From contig NC_087074.1 in the NCBI RefSeq assembly GCF_026151205.1, forward strand, positions 2,232,001 to 2,296,000: a stretch of DNA of 64,000 nucleotides, in the 5' to 3' direction. Both the position numbers and the translations under genes were made by a program. Origin of the DNA: Bolinopsis microptera. Its lineage: Eukaryota; Ctenophora; Tentaculata; Lobata; Bolinopsidae. Positions 155 to 21,036 of this stretch are shown here, piece after piece (the first letter of the stretch is position 1; each line of letters opens with the position of its first letter). Under the pieces are notes generated by a model. That model was given only the letters and a program-made list of their open reading frames with translations. It had not been told where the DNA came from and did no database searches.

Positions 155-340
155 CTGTTTGATCAGCAAGTATAGAAGAACTAGCGTTGTTGAGAGAAGA
201 GGGTAGCACGTGAACAGTTCTAAAACAGAACTGCGGTCCCATCCATAGGCATCTGTGGGGTGCTTCGTAAGTCTGTATCTCCACATAGCTCACCCAACCC
301 TCATCCTTCTTACAAAGTTCTTCATCTTCCGCTTCTATCT
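155..340 (-). CDS. BCAS3: BCAS3 exon 14 (last in window)
   Basis: 186 bases, acceptor CTATTTCAG, donor AAACAG|GTAACT. Encodes [20 protein letters not shown] and [17 protein letters not shown], the hallmark motif of the BCAS3 C-terminal domain. Exits in phase 1, so more coding exons lie left of the window. The donor end (TCAAACAG|GT) recurs once, 41 bases further on. Confidence 0.95.

Positions 341-21036: not shown

What the first reader, a model, noticed from the sequence alone, without database searches (positions are those of the whole stretch)
155..21036. Splice-junction-seeded minisatellites in five introns of one BCAS3 gene
In introns 1, 4, 7, 12 (both ends) and 13 the tandem-repeat unit contains a stretch identical to the adjacent exon end together with its splice site: donors in introns 1, 12 and 13, acceptors in introns 4, 7 and 12. 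The exonic parts (9-59 bases) match codons conserved with vertebrate BCAS3, so the direction is exon to array. Six independent arrays starting exactly across exon-intron boundaries in one gene is far from chance placement and suggests a mechanism that begins duplication at splice junctions, for example R-loops, reverse-transcribed splicing intermediates or replication slippage. I know of no described class of such arrays.
Basis: partly seen in the sequence, partly recalled or inferred. Interest (0 to 1): 0.93.

Follow-up and report, generated by a model that had tools for sequence, protein, structure and literature searches.

The report
Intron repeats grown from exon ends
In a comb-jelly gene, short pieces of DNA that run across the end of an exon into the intron have been copied over and over, filling introns with up to about 180 spare splice sites; such 'mirage' repeats were already known from amphioxus, and they can be explained largely by random duplications that natural selection tolerates there.

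Summary
A BCAS3 gene (16 exons modelled; Pfam BCAS3_WD40 E=3.6e-106) runs on the minus strand. Six arrays in introns 1, 4, 7, 12 (both ends) and 13 carry 26, 9, 53, 9, 59 and 20 exonic bases plus the splice site in the unit. A seventh (22 bp x 163) lies just left of the window. But the class is not undescribed: such arrays are the 'mirage' minisatellites of amphioxus (PMC3087553, PMC3902484). Here they sit in a ctenophore, probably Bolinopsis microptera.

In 250 introns chosen without seeing their sequence, 9 of 39 arrays cross a junction. Random placement that spares the protein predicts 2.8 (P=0.0006) if introns had their present non-array length, but 8.3 (P=0.45) if arrays arose in introns of at most 200 bp. 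Breakpoints show no fixed distance from the junction, spanning units are longer, and decoy splice sites are kept as well as other positions (534 of 548). Best reading: randomly placed tandem duplications, tolerated because the outermost copy still serves the exon, later amplified. A junction-directed mechanism is neither needed nor excluded.

The parts
11199..21006 (-). Intron 1 donor mirage: 54-bp unit, about 181 copies, 26 exonic bases plus GC|GTGAGT; interrupted at about 19257-19592 by a stretch of about 340 bp that is not the repeat
20981..21036 (-). Exon 1, coding part (ATG at 21036 is the inferred start); its last 26 bases are the exonic part of the first array unit
8145..9233 (-). Intron 4 acceptor mirage: 69-bp unit x 15.4, 9 exonic bases of exon 5 (8153-8006)
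6510..6920 (-). Intron 7 acceptor mirage: 68-bp unit x 6.0, 53 coding bases of exon 8 (6562-6402)
3519..4795 (-). Intron 12 donor mirage: 63-bp unit x 20.2, 9 exonic bases of exon 12 (4975-4787)
2461..2736 (-). Further 4.3 copies of the intron 12 donor unit beyond a noisy stretch
1397..2172 (-). Intron 12 acceptor mirage: periods 121, 151 and 272 bp, 59 coding bases of exon 13 (1455-1249)
451..1268 (-). Intron 13 donor mirage: 60-bp unit x 14.1 with a G run in the sense strand, 20 exonic bases of exon 13
155..21036 (-). BCAS3 exons 1-14 (gene continues in L001: exons 15-16 and a 22-bp x 163 donor mirage, L001:5951-9529)

Best explanation
These are mirage-type minisatellites. Seed: a short tandem duplication (about 20-120 bp) with breakpoints random with respect to the splice junction. 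If it lies inside an exon it damages the protein and is removed. If it covers one junction it is tolerated, because the copy next to the exon still supplies the exon end and its splice site while the extra copy becomes intron. In compact introns (array-free median 199 bp) a unit of 50-70 bp often has to cover a junction. Later unequal exchange or slippage multiplies and homogenises the copies, lengthening the intron and leaving many decoy splice sites. Shown: anatomy, gene model, coding origin of the exonic half, locus specificity of the five units searched, lack of a fixed offset, no sign of selection on decoys. Inferred: the neutral seed, the duplication step, the amplification, and use of the exon-proximal site in RNA.
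For: Exonic share of the unit is compatible with uniform (16 arrays, KS P=0.31; the 9 sample arrays alone P=0.064, leaning to the exonic side). Spanning units are longer (median 49 vs 28.5 bp, one-sided P=0.016) and sit in shorter collapsed introns (one-sided P=0.028), as geometry predicts. The observed 9 of 39 fits if introns were at most 200 bp (8.3 expected) or 300 bp (6.2, P=0.14); over 15 threshold settings P for the 200-bp case stays between 0.36 and 0.73. Of the three two-copy duplications in the sample, the exact one (L083, 55 bp) shows 0 bp of microhomology; the other two have one and two mismatches and at most 1 bp by eye. Decoy GT/AG kept in 534 of 548 copies of 13 arrays vs 527.7 expected from the other dinucleotides. 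Spanning unit lengths divisible by 3: 6 of 16, about one third (from the lengths). A 55-bp x 75 array in the window runs across the stop codon of a 496-codon ORF, not a recognised splice site. The same class is published in amphioxus.
Against: With present-day intron lengths the same model predicts only 2.79 of 39 (P=0.0006; 0.0004-0.012 over 15 settings), and P is 0.053 if ancestral introns were up to 400 bp. The excess sits in kinesin genes (7 of 18 arrays, expected 1.56, P=0.0001) against 2 of 21 elsewhere (expected 1.23, P=0.35), and BCAS3 itself has 6 of 7 (expected 1.81): some genes seem prone. Ancestral intron length is not known. In the longest array, i1, GT is kept slightly less than the mean of other dinucleotides (169 of 179 = 0.944 vs 0.961). 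No RNA evidence for which splice sites are used.
Confidence: 0.7

Rival explanations
1. Junction-directed duplication: a process tied to transcription or splicing (R-loop nicks, paired single-strand breaks, template switching at exon ends) makes tandem duplications preferentially at exon-intron boundaries.
For: Excess of spanning arrays over random placement at present intron length (9 vs 2.79 of 39, P=0.0006), strongest in kinesins; seven such arrays in one BCAS3 gene; weak positive sense GC skew over 16 arrays (P=0.04); two dynein paralogues carry donor mirages after a similar motif (L083, L090); the nine sampled units lean to the exonic side (KS P=0.064).
Against: The excess disappears if introns were compact when the arrays arose; exonic bases vary from 9 to 59 with no fixed offset; 30 of 39 sample arrays do not span; one array spans a stop codon instead; GC skew does not differ significantly from non-spanning arrays (P=0.16).
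Confidence: 0.2
2. Dispersed repeat or mobile intron-like element (introner, transposon, satellite) that targets splice sites.
For: None found beyond the repetition itself.
Against: Five units searched genome-wide gave 31 rows: 30 at their own locus, one the exonic part in a paralogous dynein exon. Exonic halves are coding and differ from array to array. Only five of the 16 units were searched, and the tool warns that its DNA search skips very common words.
Confidence: 0.03
3. Assembly artefact: copies multiplied by a long-read assembler.
For: Window 2736-3519 is an indel-rich, about 67-73% identical copy of neighbouring sequence, as a noisy consensus might leave; B. microptera was assembled with wtdbg from PacBio reads (passages).
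Against: Copies differ by substitutions; the pattern recurs as 9 arrays in 8 fetched loci; in amphioxus the class is backed by trace data and RT-PCR according to PMC3087553. Copy numbers may still be wrong.
Confidence: 0.05

Closest known systems
'Mirage' minisatellites of amphioxus (Adh3, globin, TnC, PGBD5 genes); PMC3087553 section 16 read, PMC3902484 passage read; original Adh paper (PMC117041) not held, known only through these
   Different: Here in a ctenophore, with arrays of up to about 181 copies (9.8 kb) where the globin case that I read of has 6 and 3; seven in one gene; frequency measured in 250 introns; splicing and length polymorphism not tested here
Intron gain by tandem genomic duplication of an AGGT-bearing exon segment (Rogers model; review PMC3443670, passages read)
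   Same: Short tandem duplication of coding DNA with splice signals, tolerated because splicing hides it
   Different: Here an existing intron is enlarged; each array holds one junction only, and no new intron position is shown
Ordinary intronic minisatellites
   Same: Period, copy number, homogenisation
   Different: Unit includes coding DNA and a splice site; 30 of 39 arrays in the sample are of the ordinary kind

Membership tests
Mirage minisatellite | Tandem unit contains an exon end together with its splice site | tested here: met
   6 arrays in the window, 1 in L001, 9 in the blind sample
Mirage minisatellite | Both 5' and 3' junctions can be affected | tested here: met
   11 donor and 5 acceptor arrays of 16
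Mirage minisatellite | Many repeats keep AG/GT signals | tested here: met
   534 of 548 copies in the 13 arrays examined; the three two-copy arrays were not in that count
Mirage minisatellite | Does not disturb the normal mRNA | not testable with these tools
   No RNA data; only the open frame through 16 exons is shown
Mirage minisatellite | Length polymorphism between haplotypes, somatic instability | not testable with these tools
   One assembly only
Intron gain by tandem genomic duplication | Duplicated AGGT supplies both donor and acceptor of the new intron | tested here: not met
   Each of the 16 arrays contains one of the two junctions only; the two arrays of intron 12 have different units
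Introner or transposon | Same element at many loci | tested here: not met
   30 of 31 rows at the units' own loci; 5 of 16 units searched

The most novel reading that the evidence does not exclude
This lineage has a mutational process that makes tandem duplications preferentially at exon ends, several times more often than elsewhere in introns and concentrated in certain genes, so that splice-site arrays are a main route of intron growth; and its spliceosome picks the exon-proximal one of up to about 180 nearly identical sites by position alone, including the last of some 6-26 acceptors, against a simple first-AG scan.
Probability: 0.2. Interest if true: 0.78.

Novelty: new member of a known kind. 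Interest (0 to 1): 0.5.

Why it matters
It carries mirage repeats from amphioxus to a ctenophore, which suggests (inference) that they arise wherever short introns meet active minisatellites, and it gives a count (9 of 250 sampled introns) with a testable null model. It also offers natural constructs for an old question: authentic and decoy splice sites here are nearly identical in sequence, so site choice should rest on position relative to the exon. Use of a decoy would bring in a stop codon in 158 of 158 (i1), 21 of 21 (i12 donor), 11 of 12 (i13), 152 of 156 (i16), 11 of 11 (i4), 4 of 4 (i7) and 2 of 2 (i12 acceptor) inner copies that keep the exact motif, so mis-splicing would be measurable.

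Tried and rejected
The PF12490 search of the genome found nothing, and its control rang nowhere, so it says nothing about absence. CCT introns (16 of the first sample, L002-L006) held one long array and one short one, both in one intron and neither across a junction. Kinases were mostly long matches in one frame and were not used. SNF2 and adaptin introns (35) gave one array, not spanning; DHC_N2 introns (48) gave five, none spanning. These negative samples are in the totals. Rfam found nothing in the window at gathering score. R-loop signature by GC skew: weak. Literature: the boundary-repeat searches listed, judged by titles and abstracts, only the two lancelet papers as relevant. Ctenophore searches (15 of 453 listed; 25 of 27 listed) showed no title or abstract start reporting such arrays; passages of PMC8527503, PMC9989829 and PMC13231562 were read and did not mention them. 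The library lacks most subscription papers.

Rows dropped before counting: of the Pfam exon rows I left out by hand 10 of 35 (CCT), 2 of 109 (kinesin), 4 of 40 (SNF2), 4 of 29 (adaptin), 4 of 67 (AAA_6) and 2 of 72 (DHC_N2). Most were full-length or isolated matches, but four CCT rows are neighbours at C3:16434927-16437149 that might hold introns. Adjacent pairs were kept only if domain positions were continuous (first sample 121 of 162). The continuity limit was relaxed from -30 to -40 positions for the two dynein samples. L050's apparent 13-bp acceptor array was not counted (unit under 18 bp, score under 100, poor splice call); with unit 12 and score 60 it counts as a tenth. Eight of 39 arrays sit at doubtful splice calls (score under 6); without them 8 of 31 span, expected 2.39, P=0.0007. 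L014/L015 and L020/L022 are near-identical introns counted twice; they hold no counted array. Period choices: 121 bp for the i12 acceptor array and 21 bp for the L024 acceptor array, though longer TRF periods score higher.

Full report
Observation. The gene is BCAS3: the joined 16-exon frame (2193 nt, open throughout, 3' end not modelled) hits Pfam BCAS3_WD40 at E=3.6e-106 and the BCAS3 C-terminal family at 1.9e-4. A seventh, 22 bp x 163 with 18 exonic bases, begins at the donor of exon 16 in the DNA left of the window (L001:5951-9529). The donors of exons 14 and 15 show two-copy donor duplications by eye.

Organism. The best solved relative of an ionotropic glutamate receptor from the same genome is Mnemiopsis ML032222a (E=9e-121, against 3.5e-71 for the next distinct protein; that ML names are Mnemiopsis is recalled). 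The contigs C1-C13 are 15.2-26.2 Mb each and hold 258.1 of 264.65 Mb, 97.5% by my sum. B. microptera is reported with 13 chromosome-scale scaffolds holding 97.23% of the assembly, about 254 Mb by k-mers, assembled with wtdbg (PMC10232365 passages). I infer a lobate ctenophore, probably that species.

Is it known? Yes. [quoted passage not shown] PMC3902484 (passage) adds TnC and PGBD5. The original Adh paper was not held.

Genome-wide test. I chose introns only by consecutive exon matches to Pfam domains (CCT, myosin, kinesin, SNF2, adaptin, two dynein domains), fetched them, placed splice sites by frame and consensus, and ran TRF: 121 + 35 + 46 + 48 = 250 introns. With score at least 100 and unit 18-250 bp there are 39 arrays; 9 cross a junction with at least 5 exonic bases (7 donors, 2 acceptors; loci L016, L024 twice, L030, L035, L036, L043, L083, L090). 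Their exonic parts encode domain sequence such as SSRSHA, INTSLSEL, FSFIDLAGS and LFRPVAMTLPDFGLIIE.

Null model. I collapsed each array to one unit and let the unit fall anywhere that leaves the protein and one junction intact. Using present intron lengths, 2.79 of 39 should span (P=0.0006). Capping ancestral introns at 130, 200, 235, 300 and 400 bp gives 11.5, 8.3, 7.4, 6.2 and 5.2 (P=0.88, 0.45, 0.30, 0.14, 0.05). The 208 array-free introns have a median of 199 bp. So random placement explains the data if introns were compact when the arrays arose, and does not if they were already long. Over 15 threshold settings P is 0.0004-0.012 for present lengths and 0.36-0.73 for the 200-bp cap. The excess lies in kinesins (7 of 18, expected 1.56) and not elsewhere (2 of 21, expected 1.23).

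Mechanism. The junction sits anywhere in the unit (exonic share 0.13-0.96, KS against uniform P=0.31 for 16 arrays, 0.064 for the 9 sampled), spanning units are longer (P=0.016) and in shorter collapsed introns (P=0.028), both one-sided. The one exact two-copy duplication (L083) has no microhomology. Five units searched are private to their loci apart from one exonic match. Inner splice dinucleotides are kept in 534 of 548 copies against 527.7 expected from the other dinucleotides, so decoys show no sign of being removed or favoured. A 55-bp array in the window (40528-44659) crosses the stop codon of a 496-codon ORF without a Pfam family; if that is the true gene end, the tolerated place is any edge of coding sequence. 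This points to random duplication plus selection, with later amplification. The step that makes the duplication is untested; fill-in and joining of staggered breaks, named for intron gain in PMC3443670 (passages), is one candidate.

Limits. No RNA, no sister species, one assembly with a noisy stretch inside intron 12 (2736-3519). Copy numbers and intron 12 length are provisional.

Noticed in passing
window 2736-3519: Indel-rich copy (about 67-73% identical) of neighbouring sequence including exon 13 and intron 12; looks like an unpolished assembly stretch or a decayed duplication.
   Followed up: partly
window 40528-44659: 55-bp x 75 array that runs across the stop codon of a 496-codon ORF (frame 46122-44626, minus strand); 74 copies keep the GAGATGTAGC stretch with the stop.
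   Followed up: partly
window 19257-19592: Stretch of about 340 bp inside the 54-bp array of intron 1 that is not the repeat, possibly an insertion.
   Followed up: no
L083 and L090: Two dynein heavy chain paralogues both carry donor arrays after a similar motif (LFRTVAMMVPDRQIII and LFRPVAMTLPDFGLIIE).
   Followed up: partly
L108 and L018: A 26-bp x 86 array ends about 1 base before an acceptor, and a 13-bp array starts exactly at a donor GT: splice signals without exonic bases in the unit.
   Followed up: no
window 21446-23788: DIS3L2-like exonuclease (Pfam RNB E=6.5e-101) in one 781-codon frame next to BCAS3 on the same strand.
   Followed up: partly
window 50527-63569: Tandem family of similar predicted membrane proteins in long frames, with a related-looking copy at 37462-39159 on the other strand; judged by eye.
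   Followed up: no
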